Assembly: GCF_014204715.1 (NCBI RefSeq)
Contig: NZ_JACHLY010000001.1
Coordinates: 2,077,001 to 2,141,000 of the forward strand
Reading direction: 5' to 3'
Length of the DNA: 64,000 nt
Origin: Streptomonospora salina
GTDB taxonomy: Bacteria; Actinomycetota; Actinomycetes; Streptosporangiales; Streptosporangiaceae
The notes beneath the pieces were generated by a model. The model had not been told where the DNA came from. It was given only the letters and a program-made list of their open reading frames with translations, and did not search any database. Position numbers and translations under genes: made by a program. The stretch's first letter is position 1. Every line of letters starts with the position of its first letter. Shown here piece by piece: positions 34,987 through 43,694 of the stretch.

Positions 34987-36261
34987 TCACAGAAAGGCGA
35001 GCACCGCCATCAGAAGGGCGGCCACGGTCGCCACAAGAAGACCGCTCGCAAGTATCGGACGCCTCCGCTGCCTGCGGCCTACGACGGCAGCCGGGACACG
35101 GGCGGACCGTCGTACGGTTCCTGTTCCCCGAGCCCGTTCCACGCCGCCGCGGCGAACCGGCGACAACGGCTCTGTCGTCGTTCTCGCTCCCGCGTTCCGG
35201 TGCCGATCCGTACCATCGGTCGCCCGATCAGACCGGCGGAACGTCCCCGGACGCGTCCTCGTCTCGGTGGAGGAATCCGGCATCCGTTTCGCCGGTGCGG
35301 GTACGCTGCGGCCGCCGACGCGGCGCACCCTGCGATATCCCACGACTCCGCTTCCTACGGGCCGGGACGGTTCCAGCCGGGACTCGGAAGCTGCTAAGGC
35401 GGCGCTGACAGCGCCGATTCCGGGCCGTGCCGCATCCGTATCGGCGTCAAGCATGGCTCGCGCCTGTCGACCGAACTCCCCTCGCCGCAGCGCCGTCGGC
35501 AGAGCCTCCAGCGCCTGGGAAGCGTCCCGCTCACCGGTGAGGGCTCGCAGGGCGAGCAGCGTCAAGCGGTAGTCGTCGGCGGCCCGCGTCAACCGCTTCG
35601 GGTGCGGGAACAGCCGATCCTCCCAGCCGGGCGACTCGATCCAAGCACGGTCGCCCAGCCCGCAGGAGTCCATGTCGATCAGGTAGACCCTGCCCTGCTC
35701 CCCGTCCCACATGGCGTTGCTGTAAGACCAATCGCCGTAAACGACGCCGTGGCGCGCGAGCATGGCACCGATTTCCAAGAAGGACTGTGCGATCCTGCTG
35801 CGCGACGCGGCGGTGGGCCGGGCGACTCCTTTGCGCTCCAGCCAGTCGTCGGACTGCGCAAGGTGGTCGATCCGCAGTTCATGACGTGATGTGCGGCGCG
35901 GCTCACCCTCGCGTCCCTTCTGCGCGAAATCCGCGTAGAAGTGCTCCGGGGCCTTGGCCGTCACGACGCCGACCGTGTGGCCGGCATCCTCGATCCGGGA
36001 CACGGGCCAGGCGATGGAGGCGTCAACGATCTCCCGGTCGCTCTCGTCCATCGATTCCGGAAGGGCGATGAGGCGGCGGAGACGCGTGTCCTCCTCACTG
36101 GACTGCGGATGTCGGTAGATCTTGGCAAGCCACCCCGGACGTTCCGGGAGCTCAGAGACCGACTTCGATTCACCCCCGGCGGTACCGACCTCCCTGCCGC
36201 GGGCACCGACCGCCGACAGACTGACGCGCTGTGCGAACGGACTGTCCGTCCACGTCCTCAT
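34987..36261 (-). CDS. Membrane-anchored Ser/Thr-type protein kinase
   Basis: 424 aa. The kinase-like domain covers about 10-290. A probable ATP-binding lysine is K47 (LAKIYR), the catalytic loop is GVVYGDWSYSN (D177, N182) and the metal loop is LIDMDSCG (D196/D198 in place of DFG). This variant is typical of TerY-triad kinases rather than of PknB. A basic, disordered linker follows and a single C-terminal membrane helix (about 403-424) anchors it. The ATG at 36261 overlaps the phosphatase stop (ATGA). It probably phosphorylates VWA or STAND partners (inference). Confidence 0.78.
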   Translation of the reverse strand: MRTWTDSPFAQRVSLSAVGARGREVGTAGGESKSVSELPERPGWLAKIYRHPQSSEEDTRLRRLIALPESMDESDREIVDASIAWPVSRIEDAGHTVGVVTAKAPEHFYADFAQKGREGEPRRTSRHELRIDHLAQSDDWLERKGVARPTAASRSRIAQSFLEIGAMLARHGVVYGDWSYSNAMWDGEQGRVYLIDMDSCGLGDRAWIESPGWEDRLFPHPKRLTRAADDYRLTLLALRALTGERDASQALEALPTALRRGEFGRQARAMLDADTDAARPGIGAVSAALAASESRLEPSRPVGSGVVGYRRVRRVGGRSVPAPAKRMPDSSTETRTRPGTFRRSDRATDGTDRHRNAGARTTTEPLSPVRRGGVERARGTGTVRRSARVPAAVVGRRQRRRPILASGLLVATVAALLMAVLAFL

Positions 36262-37766
36262 CCGCACTCCCCGCCCACCGGGCACCAGACGACCGCGGCC
36301 GTGCGGTCATCGTGGTGCTGCCGCGCCTCGAAATCGATGTGCCGCAACAATTCCGGTGCCGTCACCGGTGACCTCCACAACTCCGCGAACCGAGTCTCGG
36401 CATCCGGCAACCCTGCGATGGCGTCACTGAAACCGTCGGTGGTGATCGCCAGCACGTCCCCGGCGACCAGGGAGACGGACGACGCTGCAGCGGCCTCGGG
36501 AGTAAAGGGCAAGAAGCACTCCAAACCGCCGGTCCGCAGCCCGCTTCCGCCGCTGATCCCGGTTAGCGGTTCCCATCCCGCCGGATGCCGCCGCCAGGCG
36601 GTCGCGTCACCGACCCGTGCGAGCCACGCCTCCCGTGAGCCTCCAGGGGAGGTGGTTCCGGTTGGCACCACAGCGGCGATCGCGACCGCGCGCACGTCGT
36701 TGTGGTGCCAACCGCGCTGGTGGGCGGTTTGCGCAACATGGCTCGCGGCACCGGTGAAGGCGCTGACGGCGTCCAGCTCGGCCAAACCCAGGCCACCGTC
36801 GAGCTGGTTACGCAGCTCGTTGACGAGCGCGGCGCAGGTCACGGTCGCGGCGAGGTCGGAGTGGCGGCTGTCGGACATCCCGTCCGCGACGGCGACGATC
36901 AGGTGGCGGTACGACGAGTCGTGCCCGATCCGGAAGTCGTCCTGCCGCGGCTGCGCAGGATCGGGAGTCCGGTGCCAGGTACCGACCACCGAGGCCGCCC
37001 GCACTTCGAGATCGCCGATCCTCGCCTGGTCGGCGACCATCGCGGGATGGGCCGGGCGCTCCGGCAAGCGCCACGGTTTGGCGGCGAGCTCGGTTCCCCG
37101 GCCGAAGCTCAAATGCTCGGGCCCGCGTGCAGAACCGCCGTTCCGGTCGGCCGTCGCCTTCGGCCGACCGGGCCAGATCCCCGGGGCGGGTTCGGGCTCC
37201 CGGTCCCGCCCCTCGGGGCCGCGCCGGTCGGCGCTCTCATCCGATCGGCGCAGCCGTGGAGCGGGGAGGGCCGGGGCGCGTTCGGCGTCGCGGTGCGCCG
37301 CGGTCTCAGAGGACCCGGGCGACCACGGCCGCGCAACCGGCCGTCCCGGGCCTCCTCGTGGGTCTGCGGGGAAGAAGCGCTCCTGCTCCGCGATCCGCTC
37401 GTCCCGAGAGTCCCGGCGCACCCCCATGTCAGGCCCCACACGTCCCGGACCGAGCTGTCCGATCGGTCCGAGCGTCCTCCGGGATCGCTGGTCGGGCCAT
37501 ACCGAGAAGAACAGCGCCGCTGGGAGAATGGATACTCCGAACCCGGCGACCAGTCCCGCGGTCATGCCGTTCCCTGTCGTCAAGGCGAGTCCGCCGACTA
37601 CCGGGAGCAGCAGCGCGACAGCGACGACTGCGCCCGTTCTCGTCAACCGCGGTGCGCGCCTGCGTCCGCTACCTGCCCATCCCGGATTCCCCGAGTGCGC
37701 TCGGACGCCGGCGCGACGCTCGTGAGACCTACCGGCCGGATCGGACCACCGGTTCGCGTCAGCCAT
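36258..37766 (-). CDS. PP2C-family protein phosphatase with N-terminal membrane helices
   Basis: 502 aa from the ATG at 37766 (overlapping the SPFH-like gene end by 8 bp); an upstream in-frame GTG at 37823 is possible. Two membrane helices lie near residues 45-95, followed by a 150-residue disordered Arg/Pro-rich linker. The PP2C domain then has the metal motifs VAVADGMSDSRHSD, TDGFSDAI and HHDDRTAAVV. It should reverse the neighbouring kinase at the membrane. It is the phosphatase of the VWA/kinase/PP2C triad. Confidence 0.82.
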   Translation of the reverse strand: MADANRWSDPAGRSHERRAGVRAHSGNPGWAGSGRRRAPRLTRTGAVVAVALLLPVVGGLALTTGNGMTAGLVAGFGVSILPAALFFSVWPDQRSRRTLGPIGQLGPGRVGPDMGVRRDSRDERIAEQERFFPADPRGGPGRPVARPWSPGSSETAAHRDAERAPALPAPRLRRSDESADRRGPEGRDREPEPAPGIWPGRPKATADRNGGSARGPEHLSFGRGTELAAKPWRLPERPAHPAMVADQARIGDLEVRAASVVGTWHRTPDPAQPRQDDFRIGHDSSYRHLIVAVADGMSDSRHSDLAATVTCAALVNELRNQLDGGLGLAELDAVSAFTGAASHVAQTAHQRGWHHNDVRAVAIAAVVPTGTTSPGGSREAWLARVGDATAWRRHPAGWEPLTGISGGSGLRTGGLECFLPFTPEAAAASSVSLVAGDVLAITTDGFSDAIAGLPDAETRFAELWRSPVTAPELLRHIDFEARQHHDDRTAAVVWCPVGGECG

Positions 37767-38976
37767 GGGTGCCGTCCGCGTGGGTACGATCGCGATCGTC
37801 GACCGCCTTCCACGCCACGACACCCCCGCCTGCGGCGCTGTCCGCGTCGCCCGGGGACGCTGCCTGCCCGTTCGGGGGGCCGCCGGTGCCGCTGCCGCCG
37901 CCCGTCGGAGCCGCGCCCGCCGCCCCCTGCGGCTCCGGGGAATCGGCGCCGGAGACCGGAGTGTCCACGGCGGCGGACTGGTCCCCGTCGTCGTACGTAC
38001 CGTCTGCGGCCCCGGTTGCGGTGGCGCCGGGCATAGTCGCCGGATCGATGGACGCCGCCGAGGACGATCCCGGCAGCTGCCCTCCGGGGAAAACCGTCAA
38101 CTGCCTGCCGAGGAAGGAGAAGATCTGGTCGATATCGGCGGGTTGGGCGAAATCCTTGTCGATCAACTGCTCCATGAACTTGAGCTTCTTGTCCGCCGCC
38201 ATATCCTCACGCTGAGCGATACCCGTCAGAGCGGCGCCAAGCTGGTCGGGATGCTCGGCCAGGAACCACAGCAGCAGGCCGGCGTCGCCCTGAGCCGCCT
38301 GCTTCAGCGCCTCGATCCGCTGATCGCGAAGATCGGCCGCGTATTCTTCCTGCATCCGGCTGACCTCCTGTCCGCGTTGCGTCTCCATGACGGTGTGGTC
38401 GTGCTGCGTCTGCGCCTGCGTGGCGGCCCACTCCATCTCCTTCTGCGTGCGGAGGTGGGCCTGGGCGGCGGGATCCAGCCACAAGCCGGCGACGGAGGCG
38501 ACCACCGTGAGTCCGGAGTCGAGCCTCACCGGACCGGCCGAGAGCACGGAACCGGCGTGCTCCTCGGCCTCGCCGGCGTGCTCGATCGCGAAGCGCCGGG
38601 TGAGCGGCCTGACGCGCTCGCTCGCCCAGTCCCGGACCTGGGCGTCTGCCTCGCCCACCGTCGCGATCCTGTTCTTGACGACCGCGCACGGGTCGCTGAC
38701 GCGCCAGGTGAGAGACGCCCGAAGCTGAAACTCGAAGCCGCGCGTCGCGCTGGGCGAGGCACCGGTCCACTGAATGCGGTGCGCAGTGACGTCGACGTCG
38801 TATCGATAGGTGTAGGACATGCCGTGGATCGGCCCCGGCTTGCGGTCGAGAACGACGGGGGTGCCGTCATCGGTCGTGTACACGAGGGCGCGCCCGGGTC
38901 GGGCCGGGACACCGAGTGCCATGAAGCGGACTTCGGCGGGACCCTCGAACAGTGCATTGTGGTTGCTATCAGTCAT
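37759..38976 (-). CDS. SPFH/band-7-like protein with coiled coil
   Basis: 405 aa. The beta-rich N-terminal domain (about 10-200) with FEFQLRASLTWRVSDPCAVVKN resembles SPFH/prohibitin domains, and a helical segment with heptad-like QKEMEWAATQAQTQHDHTVM follows. A short helical domain and a Gly/Pro/Ala-rich tail end the protein. There is no clear membrane helix, so it may bind membranes or partners peripherally. SPFH proteins form large ring scaffolds. The ATG at 38976 overlaps the STAND gene stop (ATGA). The assignment is by pattern and is moderate. Confidence 0.55.
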   Translation of the reverse strand: MTDSNHNALFEGPAEVRFMALGVPARPGRALVYTTDDGTPVVLDRKPGPIHGMSYTYRYDVDVTAHRIQWTGASPSATRGFEFQLRASLTWRVSDPCAVVKNRIATVGEADAQVRDWASERVRPLTRRFAIEHAGEAEEHAGSVLSAGPVRLDSGLTVVASVAGLWLDPAAQAHLRTQKEMEWAATQAQTQHDHTVMETQRGQEVSRMQEEYAADLRDQRIEALKQAAQGDAGLLLWFLAEHPDQLGAALTGIAQREDMAADKKLKFMEQLIDKDFAQPADIDQIFSFLGRQLTVFPGGQLPGSSSAASIDPATMPGATATGAADGTYDDGDQSAAVDTPVSGADSPEPQGAAGAAPTGGGSGTGGPPNGQAASPGDADSAAGGGVVAWKAVDDRDRTHADGTHG

Positions 38977-41177
38977 CGCGTTTTCCCATTCAGAAGGGCA
39001 CGTATTTCGGCGGCCGACCGCGGTGCCGCCGCTTCGCCGGACCGTGTCCAGCGGTCCGCCAGGAACAGCACGATCCGCCGCGCGCGCGGCCGCGCGGACA
39101 CCCGCTCCAACAGCCGGGCGAAGGCCCGCCGGGCAGCGGGATCGGGGTCCGCGGCGCGCGCCCATTCACCGAGGACCCCATAGGCGGTCTCATAGGATCC
39201 GGAGGAGTTGAGCACCGTCTCCCACAGCGCCGCGATCTCCCGTTGGCGGACCGGATCGCGAGCACTCATCGCCAGGAGCGCGGGCCACGAGTGCGGCGCA
39301 CCGTCCTGCTCGTCCCCCCGCCGCTCCTCACGCAGGTCGGCAGCGGCGTAGAGGAAGGCGAGCTCCCCCAGCACACGCCGCCGGGGTTCGCGGGCGGCGG
39401 TCCAGTTGCGCATCAGGGCGAACGCCTGCCTGTGTCGGCTGTCTCCTGCCATGGCAAGACATTCGGCGATGCTCAAGCAGATCGCCTCGACGACCTGGGT
39501 CCCGTCGACGTCGGCGAGCTGGTCGAGCAGGCGAAGCGCCGGCTCGTCGCCCTCGGCACCGTCGTCGAGAAGGACCGTCCACGCACGCGCGGCCGTGGCG
39601 CACAGGGCGGTTGACCCCTGCTCGGCGGCCCAGCCGCGCACCAGGTCGCGCACCGCTTGATCGAGGCACGGCTGCCGGACCGCGGTGCTCAGTGCCGTTG
39701 CCGCAGCGTCGCGCAGGCGCGGGTCCGTGTCGGCTGCCCACTGTTGCAGCACCGTTGTCCGCACGGTGTCGAACGCCGCCTCGGCGAGAACGCCGACCGC
39801 GACGGCGGCACGCACCCGCACGCTCGGCAGCTCGTTGCGCGCGCACTGCCGCAGCCACGCGGGCAGCTCGGCCTGTGCCTGGTCGTACTCGGCCCATACC
39901 TGCTCCAGGACCCGCCGGGGTACTCCGGGATCCAGGTAGCGCACCACCCGTCCCGGAACGCCGCCGTAGCGCGCCGAAACCTCTTCCGCGAAGCGGGCCG
40001 CGTGCAGGCGAGCGAGCCGCTTCTCGCCGGTGGCCGCGAGGGGCGAGGACCGCGGCATCTCCAGGTTGTCCGGGCTTTGCGGAGGTTGGAGCCGCCGTTG
40101 GAGGGCGCGGCCGAGCGCGGCGACCGACTCATGGGGCTCGCCGCCGAACACGGCGACGGAGACCGCCAGGCACTGGGTGTCGATATCGCCGAGTTCTTCG
40201 AACCAGCGGTGGAAGCTGTGGACGTCGTTCAGGGCGAGCCGGTCTGCGACCCGCTTGACCGCCTCGTCGGCCGACCCGGTGGTCTCGGCCAGCATCCGCG
40301 CCGCGTCAGCCGCCCGCACCAGAGGCGATTCGGTCGGGGACCGGCCGGGGATCAGCGAGGCGACATCGTCCACGGCCCCGAACTCGGCTGTGCGCACCGC
40401 CCCGACGCGCCAGGTCAGGTGGGCGGTGAGGACGGCGTCCGGCGACGGGGGGTCGCCGATCTCCCGTACCTGCCGGTGCGTATCCGGGTCGTTCGGCCGC
40501 ACGCCTGCTGGGAAGGTGATGATCAGACGGCAACCGACCGGTGCGAGCAGGCGCTCCAGTCGCTGCACCTCGAAGGCGCCCAGCGTTTCGACCAGCGTCC
40601 GCGGTGCATCAACGAGGAGGTAACCGGCTCCGGGAACGACATCGTCCTCGACGAACCCGGCCAGATCGGTGTCGGGGGCCAGCCGGTAGAGCTCCGGATG
40701 GCCGGCGCCGACCAGAAGCGCCCGCGCGGCTGCGTACTTTCCCGCCCCTTCAGGTCCGGTCAAAAGCGCGACCGACGCGCTCGCCGCCGCAGCGGTCAGT
40801 TCGTCGAAGCCGAGCGGCGCCGCGAACGCCGAGCGGACCTCCTCAAGTTCGTCGCCGAAGAGCCGGTACATTCGAACGCGGGTGCCGTCGGGTTCGACCC
40901 GGAACTCGAAGTGGTCGCCCCCGTAGGCCCGTTCGGAGCGCACTCCGGCGCCGGCGAACGTCGACAACTCCGCGCGCGCACTCTTCTCAGCGCTGATCCG
41001 CTCGTTCGTGCTTCCTGGCCGGGCGGCGAGGGCGGACAGATCGCGCCGGAAATCGCCGAGACCACGCTCGTCGTCCCCCTCGGCTCCGCCTTCCTCCCGC
41101 GCGCCGTCGGCCTCATAGGGCCCCGAAGGCTCACCGGGCGGCGCATCCGGATCGGCCGAGGGCGTGTCGTCGCTCAT
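38973..41177 (-). CDS. STAND-like ATPase with C-terminal helical (HEAT-like) repeats
   Basis: 734 aa. After an acidic disordered start, residues 74-91 carry a motif ending ERAYGGDHFE that is also in the cyclase tail. A P-loop domain (about 115-330) has GPEGAGKY (141-148), where Tyr replaces the usual Ser/Thr, and the Walker-B-like YLLVD (186-190). It may bind nucleotide without hydrolysis. From about 420 onward, paired helices (for example SVRVRAAVAVGVLAEAAFDTV, DPRLRDAAATALSTAV) form a HEAT-like superhelix, a typical recognition or scaffold part. The start overlaps the cyclase stop. Confidence 0.65.
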   Translation of the reverse strand: MSDDTPSADPDAPPGEPSGPYEADGAREEGGAEGDDERGLGDFRRDLSALAARPGSTNERISAEKSARAELSTFAGAGVRSERAYGGDHFEFRVEPDGTRVRMYRLFGDELEEVRSAFAAPLGFDELTAAAASASVALLTGPEGAGKYAAARALLVGAGHPELYRLAPDTDLAGFVEDDVVPGAGYLLVDAPRTLVETLGAFEVQRLERLLAPVGCRLIITFPAGVRPNDPDTHRQVREIGDPPSPDAVLTAHLTWRVGAVRTAEFGAVDDVASLIPGRSPTESPLVRAADAARMLAETTGSADEAVKRVADRLALNDVHSFHRWFEELGDIDTQCLAVSVAVFGGEPHESVAALGRALQRRLQPPQSPDNLEMPRSSPLAATGEKRLARLHAARFAEEVSARYGGVPGRVVRYLDPGVPRRVLEQVWAEYDQAQAELPAWLRQCARNELPSVRVRAAVAVGVLAEAAFDTVRTTVLQQWAADTDPRLRDAAATALSTAVRQPCLDQAVRDLVRGWAAEQGSTALCATAARAWTVLLDDGAEGDEPALRLLDQLADVDGTQVVEAICLSIAECLAMAGDSRHRQAFALMRNWTAAREPRRRVLGELAFLYAAADLREERRGDEQDGAPHSWPALLAMSARDPVRQREIAALWETVLNSSGSYETAYGVLGEWARAADPDPAARRAFARLLERVSARPRARRIVLFLADRWTRSGEAAAPRSAAEIRALLNGKTR

Positions 41178-41977
41178 CGGCTCGCCCTCCCGCCTGTGCC
41201 CTCGTTGTGGTCGCCGCCGTAGACGCGCTCGGCCGAGATCCGCGCGCCGGCGAAGCGGCCGGTATTGGCCTGCGGAAGGTCCGGCCAGGACTCGTCGCCG
41301 CCTTCCCCGCTGTTCTCGTCCGGCTCCGTACCGCCGTCCGCGTCCGGCGAGGGAGCAGTGTCGGGGGCACCGGCGACGGTTCCGGGCGGCAGGGGGTGCC
41401 CGGGAACCGTGATCCACGCGTTCTGCCGGACCTCCTTGGCCGTGAACGGGACCTGCAGGAAGTCATCGGAGATGTCGGGGTGGTTGTGCCGGAGCACGCT
41501 GGAATGCCAAGCCTGCGACACGGCGAGCACGAGGTCAGCGGCGGGGCGGCACTGTTGGAGGCAGGACTTGAGGGGGGCGATGTCGACCAGGCGGCACGCG
41601 GTGTTGAGATCGGTGCCCACCCAGCTCTGGCGGTCGCGCGCCACCTCTCCCGAATGCAGTGCTATTCGCAACCGAAGTTCGGCATCGGCGCTGCTGACCT
41701 GCTTGTACGCGCGCAACTCGGCCCGCAGACACCGCATGAAGTTCGCTGTCAGCTCCACCTTGGGCACCGTTCCGGGGAACAGCCAGAAGGCACCGTCGCC
41801 GCGGTCGGTGGGCGTGGGTGAGCCGCTGAAGTCGATCCCTGACGCGGCCATCGCAGCGTCGGCGATGCCGTACATTCTCTCCCGCAGCCAGTACTGGAGC
41901 GGGTCGGGCCGCCGGCCGAACCCCTCTATGTCGGCGACCATGATCACGTAGTAGCTGGATCTCGTACGCGCCGGCAT
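41174..41977 (-). CDS. Class III nucleotide cyclase (CHD domain), possible PycC-like
   Basis: 267 aa; the cyclase homology domain fills residues 8-195. The two metal-binding aspartates are D16 (VADIEGF) and D61 (RGDGAFWLF), spaced as in active class III cyclases. GTDLNTACRLVD (121-132) holds the transition-state Asn N125 and Arg R129. No membrane or receptor domain is present. A disordered acidic linker leads to a tail motif (242-259) shared with the next gene product. Small free-standing cyclases of this size make cCMP/cUMP in Pycsar systems; product identity here is unknown. The ATG follows AGAGGA. A perfect palindrome lies 102 bp upstream. Confidence 0.8.
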   Translation of the reverse strand: MPARTRSSYYVIMVADIEGFGRRPDPLQYWLRERMYGIADAAMAASGIDFSGSPTPTDRGDGAFWLFPGTVPKVELTANFMRCLRAELRAYKQVSSADAELRLRIALHSGEVARDRQSWVGTDLNTACRLVDIAPLKSCLQQCRPAADLVLAVSQAWHSSVLRHNHPDISDDFLQVPFTAKEVRQNAWITVPGHPLPPGTVAGAPDTAPSPDADGGTEPDENSGEGGDESWPDLPQANTGRFAGARISAERVYGGDHNEGTGGRASR

Positions 41978-42078
41978 TTTTCGTTCCTCTTTCCCTGTCC
42001 GTATCCGATGTGCCGCCGCGCTTCTCACACGGGCACCGGCGGCAGCATCCACGATTAACCGGAACTGCTCGCCGCGTA

Positions 42079-42094
42079 TGCGTCATATGACGCA
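42079..42094. promoter_or_regulatory. Perfect 16-bp palindrome, likely Crp-type operator
   Basis: TGCGTCATATGACGCA lies in the 169-bp gap between the Crp-family gene and the cyclase gene. Half-sites TGCGT/ACGCA with a 6-bp centre match the 5-6-5 geometry of Crp/GlxR sites (TGTGA-N6-TCACA), with substitutions. Confidence 0.65.
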
Positions 42095-42146: not shown

Positions 42147-42842
42147 TCAGCCGCTCGGCCATCCGTTCAACCGTGTGGGATTCTGCACGAGCAGGACTCC
42201 GCGGTTGCGCGATACGAGCCCGGCGCGTTCCAGCTCCTTGAGCGCGCGCACCACGGATTCGCGCGATGTGCCCGAGGCACCGGCGAGATCCTGCTGGGTG
42301 ACTTGTACCCGGCGGGCGCGGGGGCCCGCGTCGAGTGCAGGGACGCCGTATCGGTGAGCGAGATCGGCGAGCACGCTGGCGATACGCGTGCGCGCGGTGT
42401 GGGCGCCGTTGCCGGCGCGATGGGTGTCGGAGTGCCGCAGTCTCGCGCCGACGCTGCGCAGGACTGCCATGGCGAGCCCGGCATTGCCCTGGAGAAGAGC
42501 CAGGAAGCGGTCGGCCGAGATGACGGTACCCAGCCCGGCGGTGGACGCGGTGACGGTGGCGGAGCGAGGGCGGCCGTCCAGGCAGGCCATCTCGCCGACC
42601 AGTTCGCCCGGTCCGCGCACGGCCAGCAGGCTGGTATAGCCGTTAGAGGCATGGACCGTGGCTTTGATCTGGCCTTCTTCGATCATGATCACGCAGTCGG
42701 GGGCCCCTCCCTCGCAGAGGAGCACGTCGCCGCGCCGCCACCTCTTGTGCGCCCCCGTCTTCCGCAGGGCCCCGATCTGATCCGCTGAGAAATCCGCAGA
42801 TCCAAGGCCCGAAAAAGCGCTCTCCGGATATTGCAAGTCCAT
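42147..42842 (-). CDS. Crp/Fnr-family cyclic-nucleotide-responsive regulator
   Basis: 231 aa. The N-terminal cNMP-binding barrel has an intact phosphate-binding cassette GELVGEMACLDGRPRSATV (79-97; R93 and S94 contact the nucleotide in Crp). The dimer helix follows and the C-terminal winged helix contains VTQQDLAGASGTSRESVVRAL. No Fe-S cysteine set is present. The ATG has GGAGGG upstream. It probably senses the product of the neighbouring cyclase and binds the palindrome at 42079 (inference). It is divergent from the membrane-effector-like gene. Confidence 0.88.
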   Translation of the reverse strand: MDLQYPESAFSGLGSADFSADQIGALRKTGAHKRWRRGDVLLCEGGAPDCVIMIEEGQIKATVHASNGYTSLLAVRGPGELVGEMACLDGRPRSATVTASTAGLGTVISADRFLALLQGNAGLAMAVLRSVGARLRHSDTHRAGNGAHTARTRIASVLADLAHRYGVPALDAGPRARRVQVTQQDLAGASGTSRESVVRALKELERAGLVSRNRGVLLVQNPTRLNGWPSG

Positions 42843-43100: not shown

Positions 43101-43694
43101 ATGACGACGGGATCTATTCGGGGACGGATGAAGCGCCGGCACATGTCCGCGCGCAGACTCGCGGTCAAAGGCGGAGGCCCCGTCACCCCGGCGACCGAGC
43201 GTCCCGGCGTGGGGCCTCCGGGCGAGGACGCCCTCTTCGCTATCGACCAGACAGGACAATGGATACGCAGCGCCGATACCAAGGCTGGCCTTCTGGGCGC
43301 CGCCCTCTCCGTTCTCGCCACCGGTGTGGCGGCGGAGGCGGCGAAGTCGGGTGTCCCGGTACTCGACGCGGCCTCAGTTCGCGAATCCCTGTCGGGATGG
43401 CTGCTGATCATTCTCGCGGCATTCTTGGTGATCGCGATCGCACTCACCGTGAAAACGGTATCGCCGCGCATATCTACTCCCCGCTACCGTTCACGCTATT
43501 CCTGGCCGTGGCTGAACGCAATGGACCCGATGGAGCTGAGCCGGTTGGGCAGCACGAATTCGCGGCATGAGGCGTGGGTGCAGGCCATCTATCTCGCGGG
43601 AGTGGCCGAGGCGAAGCATCGGAGCCTGCGGCTCGCGTTGCGCTTCTTCGCCGCGGCGGGGGTGCTGTTCCTCCTGTGGAGTGCTCTGCGGTGA
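43101..43694 (+). CDS. Pycsar-effector-like membrane protein (PycTM/DUF5706 type)
   Basis: 197 aa. A basic N-terminus is followed by LFAIDQTGQWIRSADTKAG, whose ADTKA (58-62) just before the first membrane helix matches the conserved start of Pycsar TM effectors. Membrane helices lie at about 62-80, 100-118 and 180-195, with a cytoplasmic segment between the second and third. In Pycsar defence such proteins damage the membrane on binding a cyclic pyrimidine nucleotide. A free-standing cyclase lies 1.1 kb away on the other strand. The ATG at 43101 is preceded by GGCAGAGG. Confidence 0.7.
   Translation: MTTGSIRGRMKRRHMSARRLAVKGGGPVTPATERPGVGPPGEDALFAIDQTGQWIRSADTKAGLLGAALSVLATGVAAEAAKSGVPVLDAASVRESLSGWLLIILAAFLVIAIALTVKTVSPRISTPRYRSRYSWPWLNAMDPMELSRLGSTNSRHEAWVQAIYLAGVAEAKHRSLRLALRFFAAAGVLFLLWSALR

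What the first reader, a model, noticed from the sequence alone, without database searches (positions are those of the whole stretch)
40895..41254. Cyclase tail and STAND N-terminus share a YGGDH motif
The cyclase ends with FAGARISAERVYGGDHNE (residues 242-259) and the next gene's STAND protein has FAGAGVRSERAYGGDHFE (74-91): 12 of 18 identical. In both it sits in an otherwise disordered region outside the enzyme domain. This looks like a homotypic interaction tag or common beta-hairpin that brings sensor and cyclase together.
Basis: seen in the sequence. Interest (0 to 1): 0.72.

Follow-up and report, generated by a model that had tools for sequence, protein, structure and literature searches.

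The report
Matched tags pair cyclase with NLR-like ATPase
Two neighbouring bacterial genes, one for a signal-making cyclase and one for an immune-receptor-like ATPase, end and begin with the same short tag, and in relatives the tag changes but still tends to match its own partner, which suggests a private plug-and-socket by which the receptor switches on the cyclase.

Summary
In detail: 12 of 18 residues match, and no other window ORF scores comparably. The stronger finding is comparative. In actinobacterial relatives the cyclase C-tail and the next protein's N-terminus again share a motif, but a different one by lineage (e.g. YGGDHFEF, VVGGDEITY, GRDQHNHYY). In 24 pairs found by enzyme homology, not by tags, cognate similarity averages 64.2 against 36.6 for mismatched pairs (0 of 20000 permutations). 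Control segments show nothing. Tag similarity tracks tag similarity beyond ATPase-body similarity (partial Mantel r 0.53, 0 of 5000). In five usable genomes with two systems, cognate beats cross pairing in 5 of 5. These are co-diversifying homotypic tags, laid out like bacterial amyloid signalling sequences (BASS) of NLR-effector pairs, but the client is a class III cyclase (in some relatives a SARP/BTAD regulator). A CRP-like gene is in the operon and a PycTM (Pycsar effector) gene beside it; PycTM lies within 6 kb of the ATPase gene in 9 of 34 genomes. Best reading: an NLR-controlled, Pycsar-like module. Tag binding, amyloid formation, trigger, cNMP identity and anti-phage activity are untested.

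The parts
41201..41254 (-). C-terminal tag of the cyclase (residues 242-259, FAGARISAERVYGGDHNE)
   Evidence: pLDDT under 50
40905..40958 (-). N-terminal tag of the NLR-like ATPase (residues 74-91, FAGAGVRSERAYGGDHFE)
   Evidence: pLDDT under 50
41174..41977 (-). class III nucleotidyl cyclase (267 aa; an in-frame GTG start at 42052 is possible); keeps D16, D61, N125, R129
   Evidence: Foldseek to CyaC 1wc1 E 1e-8; residues mapped by motif
38973..41177 (-). NLR-like P-loop ATPase with HEAT-like repeats; its ATG overlaps the cyclase stop by 4 bases
42147..42842 (-). CRP-like cNMP-binding transcription factor, upstream of the cyclase
   Evidence: Pfam cNMP_binding 6.1e-18, HTH_Crp_2 7.4e-15
43101..43694 (+). 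PycTM (Pycsar effector) gene, divergent from the CRP gene; start codon uncertain
   Evidence: Pfam PF18967 31.8 bits, cut-off 27.2; PADLOC PycTM 1.2e-12
37759..38976 (-). SPFH/Band 7-like protein (weak Pfam match)
   Evidence: Pfam Band_7 E 0.011, below cut-off; conserved neighbour
36258..37823 (-). PP2C-type phosphatase
   Evidence: Pfam PP2C_2 8e-13
34987..36285 (-). kinase-like protein
   Evidence: Pfam APH 1.6e-4, just below cut-off

Best explanation
The two motifs are a matched pair of homotypic interaction tags that work like bacterial amyloid signalling sequences: the NLR-like ATPase carries the tag on its disordered N-terminal leader, the cyclase carries the same tag on its disordered C-tail. 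Shown by sequence: the tags exist, lie at the client C-terminus and receptor N-terminus of overlapping genes, and co-diversify pair by pair. Inferred: on sensing a trigger the ATPase oligomerises, its clustered tags recruit or template the cyclase tags, and the cyclase (class III enzymes work as dimers; recalled) is activated by clustering. Inferred: the cNMP made is read by the operon's CRP-like factor and by the neighbouring PycTM membrane protein. The tag stands in for the covalent cyclase-NB-ARC fusions seen in relatives.
For: 24 pairs chosen by enzyme homology: cognate 64.2 vs non-cognate 36.6, 0 of 20000 permutations; 9 representatives under 40% identity 69.1 vs 33.9, 0 of 20000; 17 of 24 beat all 300 shuffles. 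17 representatives: 64.0 vs 32.6, with null controls on the ATPase C-terminus (24.3 vs 24.7) and the cyclase domain (30.8 vs 30.2). 21 representatives 63.7 vs 31.8, 0 of 20000. Close operon group n=14: 0 of 20000; partial Mantel r 0.53 given ATPase body, 0 of 5000. Two systems in one genome: cognate sum above cross sum in 5 of 5 usable genomes. Covalent cyclase-NB-ARC fusions in 3 of 3 long cyclase ORFs scanned. CRP directly upstream in 18 of 28 cyclase-ATPase loci; PycTM within 6 kb of the ATPase in 9 of 34 genomes.
Against: No physical data. Of the 24 pairs, L032, L037 and L103 do not beat shuffles (155, 68 and 61 of 300 as good), and L073, L035, L075, L093 had 12, 5, 2 and 1; only 11 of 24 cognates are best in their row, as near relatives share tags. 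Pairing is not significant within 5 loci of the Actinomadura subgroup (2643 of 20000). The metal-binding aspartates are lost in 5 of 37 relatives and unreadable in 1, and all four catalytic residues are kept in only 5 of 37, so in some members the client may not be an active cyclase. The P-loop Lys is Arg in 18 of 45. PycTM was not found near the ATPase in 25 of 34 genomes.
Confidence: 0.72

Rival explanations
1. Stronger version: the tags are true functional amyloid motifs (BASS proper). The receptor tag forms a cross-beta nucleus that templates the cyclase tag in prion-like fashion.
For: Same layout as published BASS pairs: short motif at NLR N-terminus and effector C-terminus of adjacent or overlapping genes in multicellular bacteria (PMC7889193 passages; PMC8086366 passages). 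Tags are Gly/Asp/Asn/His-rich with alternating hydrophobics and disordered as monomers.
Against: No amyloid predictor or experiment was run; published BASS3-type peptides show no consistent similarity (z above 3 in 2 and 7 of 90 segments). A non-amyloid homotypic beta or coil contact fits the data as well.
Confidence: 0.45
2. The tags do not bind each other but are two copies of a docking site for a third protein (for instance the SPFH scaffold), or a shared localisation signal.
For: SPFH, PP2C and kinase-like genes follow the ATPase in 13 of 48 loci.
Against: Tag pairs also occur in loci without detected SPFH/PP2C/kinase genes; no third window ORF carries the tag. A third partner would have to co-diversify with both.
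Confidence: 0.12
3. The similarity reflects common descent or gene conversion of adjacent sequence without a protein-protein role.
For: The genes are adjacent, so local duplication is possible; near relatives share tags.
Against: Tags sit as conserved islands at fixed places in otherwise variable leaders and tails, and the match is kept across loci whose ATPase bodies are under 40% identical.
Confidence: 0.06
4. Chance or biased composition.
For: Tails and leaders are compositionally biased; 3 of 24 pairs do not beat shuffles.
Against: Pairing permutations with row and column means removed reach the observed value in 0 of 20000.
Confidence: 0.01

Closest known systems
BASS (bacterial amyloid signalling sequences) in NLR-effector gene pairs (Dyrka 2020, not read; seen through PMC7889193, PMC8086366 and PMC12261475 passages)
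   Same: Short matched motif at receptor N-terminus and client C-terminus of adjacent or overlapping genes; many motif families; multicellular actinobacteria
   Different: The client is a class III cyclase or SARP regulator, not BELL, CHAT or TIR (the effectors named); the ATPase lacks a Pfam NACHT/NB-ARC match; amyloid formation unknown
Pycsar (PycC cyclase plus PycTM or PycTIR effector)
   Same: A class III cyclase and a PycTM gene in one neighbourhood; a cNMP-binding protein present
   Different: The cyclase matches the PADLOC PycC model only weakly (E 0.002); it has an extra tag and a dedicated NLR-like ATPase; the cNMP reader in the operon is a CRP-type transcription factor
Cyclase-NB-ARC(-TPR) fusion proteins (L005, L008, L011) and AfsR-type SARP-NB-ARC proteins (recalled)
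   Same: The same functional halves, client plus STAND-type ATPase, in one chain
   Different: Here they are separate proteins joined, we infer, by the matched tag
NTP-dependent conflict systems with effector-associated domains (EADs), Kaur 2020 (PMC7159879, passages)
   Same: Adapter elements shared by an NTPase and an effector; cNMP cyclases among the effectors
   Different: EADs are described as folded domains reused among systems; these tags are short, disordered as monomers, and differ from locus to locus

Membership tests
BASS amyloid signalling pair | Matching short motif at NLR N-terminus and effector C-terminus of adjacent genes | tested here: met
BASS amyloid signalling pair | Receptor is an NLR (NACHT/NB-ARC STAND ATPase with repeats) | tested here: inconclusive
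   P-loop AAA+-like domain plus HEAT-like repeats; weak Foldseek match to SAMD9, TM 0.16; no Pfam NACHT/NB-ARC
BASS amyloid signalling pair | Effector is BELL, CHAT or TIR | tested here: not met
   client is a class III cyclase or SARP/BTAD protein; BASS are reported mostly, not only, with BELL, so this is a departure rather than an exclusion
BASS amyloid signalling pair | Motif belongs to one of the families BASS1-10 | not testable with these tools
   BASS profiles not held; two published BASS3-type peptides show no consistent similarity; 0 of 8 tag peptides hit Pfam
BASS amyloid signalling pair | Motif forms amyloid or prion and cross-seeds its partner | not testable with these tools
   needs peptide and prion assays
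Pycsar | Class III cyclase with catalytic residues | tested here: met
   window protein: fold, D16, D61, N125, R129
Pycsar | PycTM or other Pycsar effector in the neighbourhood | tested here: met
   window PycTM over cut-off; within 6 kb of the ATPase in 9 of 34 genomes
Pycsar | Cyclase is a PycC-type pyrimidine cyclase making cCMP or cUMP | tested here: inconclusive
   weak PADLOC PycC match, E 0.002; T57 and S118 at the presumed base-recognition positions; product unknown
Pycsar | Anti-phage activity | not testable with these tools
   needs phage challenge in a laboratory strain

The most novel reading that the evidence does not exclude
An NLR-gated Pycsar-like immune system in which a variable, locus-private amyloid-like tag is the wire between receptor and cyclase. 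The tag acts as an insulation code that keeps paralogous systems in one cell apart, and one receptor family is wired through such tags either to a cyclase or to a SARP transcription factor.
Probability: 0.42. Interest if true: 0.87.

Novelty: new variant of a known kind. Interest (0 to 1): 0.75.

Why it matters
If true, tag-templated NLR signalling in bacteria reaches second-messenger enzymes and transcription factors, beyond the BELL, CHAT and TIR clients named in the text I saw. It would join two immune logics, NLR sensing and Pycsar-type cyclic-nucleotide signalling, in one operon. The naturally matched but mutually different tag pairs (43 cyclase pairs collected here) form a ready-made set for testing what sets partner specificity in homotypic or amyloid signalling motifs.

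Tried and rejected
Fixed-motif search: the YGGDH codon pattern occurs 4 times in the genome, two of them ours; as the motif varies by locus, this was dropped for pair tests. A scan of genome contigs with the ATPase alone found no relative; with an alignment it found 12 loci.

RHIM/BASS3 identity: two BASS3-type peptides and one sigma peptide, compared with 90 tag-bearing segments, gave z above 3 in 2, 7 and 1 of 90; no family membership is claimed. Isolated tags against Pfam: 0 of 8 with a hit at E up to 10. Beta-hairpin: monomer models leave both tags below pLDDT 50. STAND chains do not lead the VIA-align rows; that does not exclude the fold.

CRP operator: no exact TGTGA-N6-TCACA in the window; the 16-bp palindrome at 42079-42094 does not recur in the CRP-cyclase spacers of the 16 relatives listed.

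Rows handled apart: 24 of 48 loci gave no automatic cyclase-ATPase pair. From these, 3 diverged cyclase pairs (L084, L091, L106) and 8 SARP pairs were added; L071 is the same contig as L109, which was used instead; the others were not used. Of the 10 newly fetched second-copy loci, six entered; L144 (partner family not identified), L143, L146 and L152 (no clear tagged partner) were left out, so G288, G187, G110 and G093 drop out of the two-systems test. The 19 cyclase pairs added after the first 24, and the SARP pairs, were located largely by tag strings seen in candidate lists ranked by tag similarity, so they are biased towards matching; the first 24 are not. In the Mantel test the fixed 32-residue tail of L032 cuts off most of its tag.

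Literature: the searches listed no report of a tag-linked cyclase-NLR-CRP module; the library holds open-licence papers only, and Dyrka 2020 was not read (recalled, and seen cited).

Full report
What is in the window. On the minus strand an operon reads: CRP-like regulator (42147-42842), class III cyclase (41174-41977), NLR-like P-loop ATPase (38973-41177, overlapping the cyclase stop as ATGA), SPFH-like protein, PP2C phosphatase, kinase-like protein. Divergent from the CRP gene is a PycTM gene (about 43101-43694, plus strand), over the Pfam cut-off and matched by PADLOC PycTM models.

The cyclase ends in FAGARISAERVYGGDHNE (242-259) and the ATPase has FAGAGVRSERAYGGDHFE (74-91), 12 of 18 identical; shuffled termini gave at most 10 of 18 in 400 trials, and only these two of 543 window ORFs score high with either motif. 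AlphaFold2 models built on 11 and 13 sequences fold the enzyme bodies well but leave both tags below pLDDT 50.

What the flanking domains are. The cyclase model matches adenylyl cyclase CyaC (1wc1, Foldseek E 1e-8) and many other class III cyclases. Mapped by motif, it keeps both metal-binding aspartates (D16, D61) and the Asn-Arg pair (N125, R129) (the roles of these positions are recalled). Across 37 cyclases, window included, both aspartates are kept in 31 and all four residues in 5; L070, L075, L109, L111 and L113 lack one or both aspartates, and L135 could not be read. A missing Asn need not mean inactivity: Ma1120, titled an adenylyl cyclase in the PDB, reads VAMAYRV in that stretch. The ATPase has an AAA+-like domain (for instance FtsH 4ww0, Z 11.3 over 199 residues) and HEAT-like repeats from about 316. 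Its first Foldseek row is human SAMD9 (E 6.3e-6, but TM only 0.16), with the bacterial SIR2-STAND EfAvs5 at rank 40. Pfam sees no NACHT or NB-ARC, so I call it NLR-like. By a simple pattern the P-loop Lys is present in 12 of 45 relatives and Arg stands there in 18; the other 15 did not fit the pattern or had Gln.

The comparative result. Relatives of the cyclase occur in 175 of 297 genomes of the same GTDB order, relatives of the ATPase in 65 of 297, and in 8 of 396 genomes drawn across the phylum, own genome included. From 48 loci, 24 gave an adjacent cyclase-ATPase pair found by homology to the two enzymes, not by the tags. Most show a shared motif, but the motif differs: VVGGDEITYITV, GRDQHNHYYGG, GGDAFxGDKVxGxKxIH, VVNNFxxxVxVSxGxIG, AAGRDxN and others. 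Smith-Waterman scores of 60-residue tails against 200-residue leaders average 64.2 for cognate and 36.6 for non-cognate pairs; 0 of 20000 permutations reach this. For 9 representatives below 40% identity the means are 69.1 and 33.9, again 0 of 20000. Singly, 17 of 24 pairs beat all 300 shuffles; L093, L075, L035 and L073 had 1, 2, 5 and 12 as good, and L103, L037 and L032 had 61, 68 and 155 and so do not stand on their own.

Controls and extensions. With 17 representatives the contrast is 64.0 against 32.6 (0 of 20000), while the same test on the ATPase C-terminus or on the cyclase domain shows nothing (24.3 vs 24.7; 30.8 vs 30.2). With 43 cyclase pairs and 21 representatives it is 63.7 against 31.8, 0 of 20000; the cognate is best in 16 of 21 rows and 16 of 21 columns. 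Rows where it is not best: L037, L133 (a tie), L136, L137, L151. Among all 43, the cognate is best in 21 rows and 17 columns, since near relatives share tags. The 19 pairs added after the first 24 were located largely through their tags and are biased towards matching. Inside the close operon group (n=14) pairing is still significant (0 of 20000), and tag similarity tracks tag similarity after removal of ATPase-body similarity (partial Mantel r 0.53, 0 of 5000); within 5 loci of the Actinomadura subgroup it is not significant (2643 of 20000).

Two systems in one genome. I fetched second copies from eight genomes; with G665, five genomes had two usable systems (G665, G195, G210, G279, G227; in G227 one is of the SARP type). 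The cognate sum exceeds the cross sum in 5 of 5, as expected if tags insulate paralogous circuits. Four genomes dropped out because a second tagged pair could not be defined.

Clients and fusions. Among the loci without a cyclase pair, 8 have upstream of the ATPase a protein with the look of a SARP regulator; the two that were scanned (L088, L101) carry Trans_reg_C and BTAD domains. Their C-terminal motif (of the type VFNxxVxVSGDFxI) resembles the ATPase leader (LFNDSVxIGGGF); pairing within this set is weaker (45.0 vs 33.7, 107 of 20000, n=8). Three cyclase relatives with long ORFs (L005, L008, L011) were scanned and 3 of 3 carry NB-ARC in the same chain, so cyclase and NLR-type ATPase are also found covalently joined.

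Output genes. A CRP-like gene lies directly upstream of the cyclase in 18 of 28 cyclase-ATPase loci; a few of the other ten lie near a contig end and could not show it. SPFH, PP2C and kinase-like genes follow in 13 of 48 loci. PycTM was sought in 34 genomes chosen from those with the ATPase: 18 have a match (17 over the cut-off), and in 9 genomes a copy lies within 6 kb of the ATPase gene (G000, G185, G081, G424, G007, G097, G531, G319, G489; against positions). By my arithmetic (26 listed copies, about 14 kb of target per genome of about 8 Mb) roughly 0.05 would be expected at random. This ties the module to Pycsar-type signalling better than the single copy in the window would; 25 of 34 genomes show no such copy.

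Interpretation. The best-supported reading is a matched homotypic tag that couples an NLR-like sensor to a cyclase. The layout equals that of bacterial amyloid signalling pairs: PMC7889193 (passages) names BELL as the main effector and CHAT and TIR as rarer ones. 'Cyclase' occurs 0 times in the main text of PMC7889193, PMC8086366 and PMC12261475. Kaur 2020 (PMC7159879, passages) describes cNMP cyclases in other conflict systems and holds 'amyloid' 0 times. Pycsar was seen only as an abstract in a listing (PMC11224242) and otherwise recalled. Shown here: tag identity, position, pair-specific co-variation, gene order, predicted folds. Inferred: tag-tag binding, clustering, cyclase activation, reading of a cNMP by CRP and PycTM, defence role.

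Verdict. It is a new variant of a known kind (BASS-like NLR-client pairing) with a new class of client, joined to Pycsar-type output.

Noticed in passing
window 43101-43694; L072:10778-11341; L084:5019-5630: PycTM (Pycsar effector) genes next to the CRP gene of the module, over the Pfam cut-off in all three scanned.
   Followed up: yes
window 42079-42094: Perfect 16-bp palindrome TGCGTCATATGACGCA between the CRP and cyclase genes; the only exact copy in the genome. A candidate CRP operator, not conserved in the relatives listed.
   Followed up: partly
L081, L085, L088, L089, L090, L099, L101, L102: SARP/BTAD-like regulators whose C-terminal motif resembles the N-terminus of the adjacent ATPase: looks like AfsR split in two and rejoined by a tag.
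   Followed up: partly
L073-L078, L082, L096, L098, L100 and others: P-loop Lys of the ATPase replaced by Arg (18 of 45 by a simple pattern), suggesting altered or lost ATP hydrolysis.
   Followed up: no
L070, L109, L111, L113: Cyclases that lost both metal-binding aspartates yet keep the tag: possible pseudo-cyclase clients.
   Followed up: no
L070, L071 (same contig as L109), L111, L119: A second CRP-cyclase gene pair lies a few kb downstream of the tagged operon.
   Followed up: no
L086, L092, L097, upstream of the CRP gene: A Gln-rich protein of about 200 aa divergent from the CRP gene; no Pfam hit for the L086 copy.
   Followed up: no
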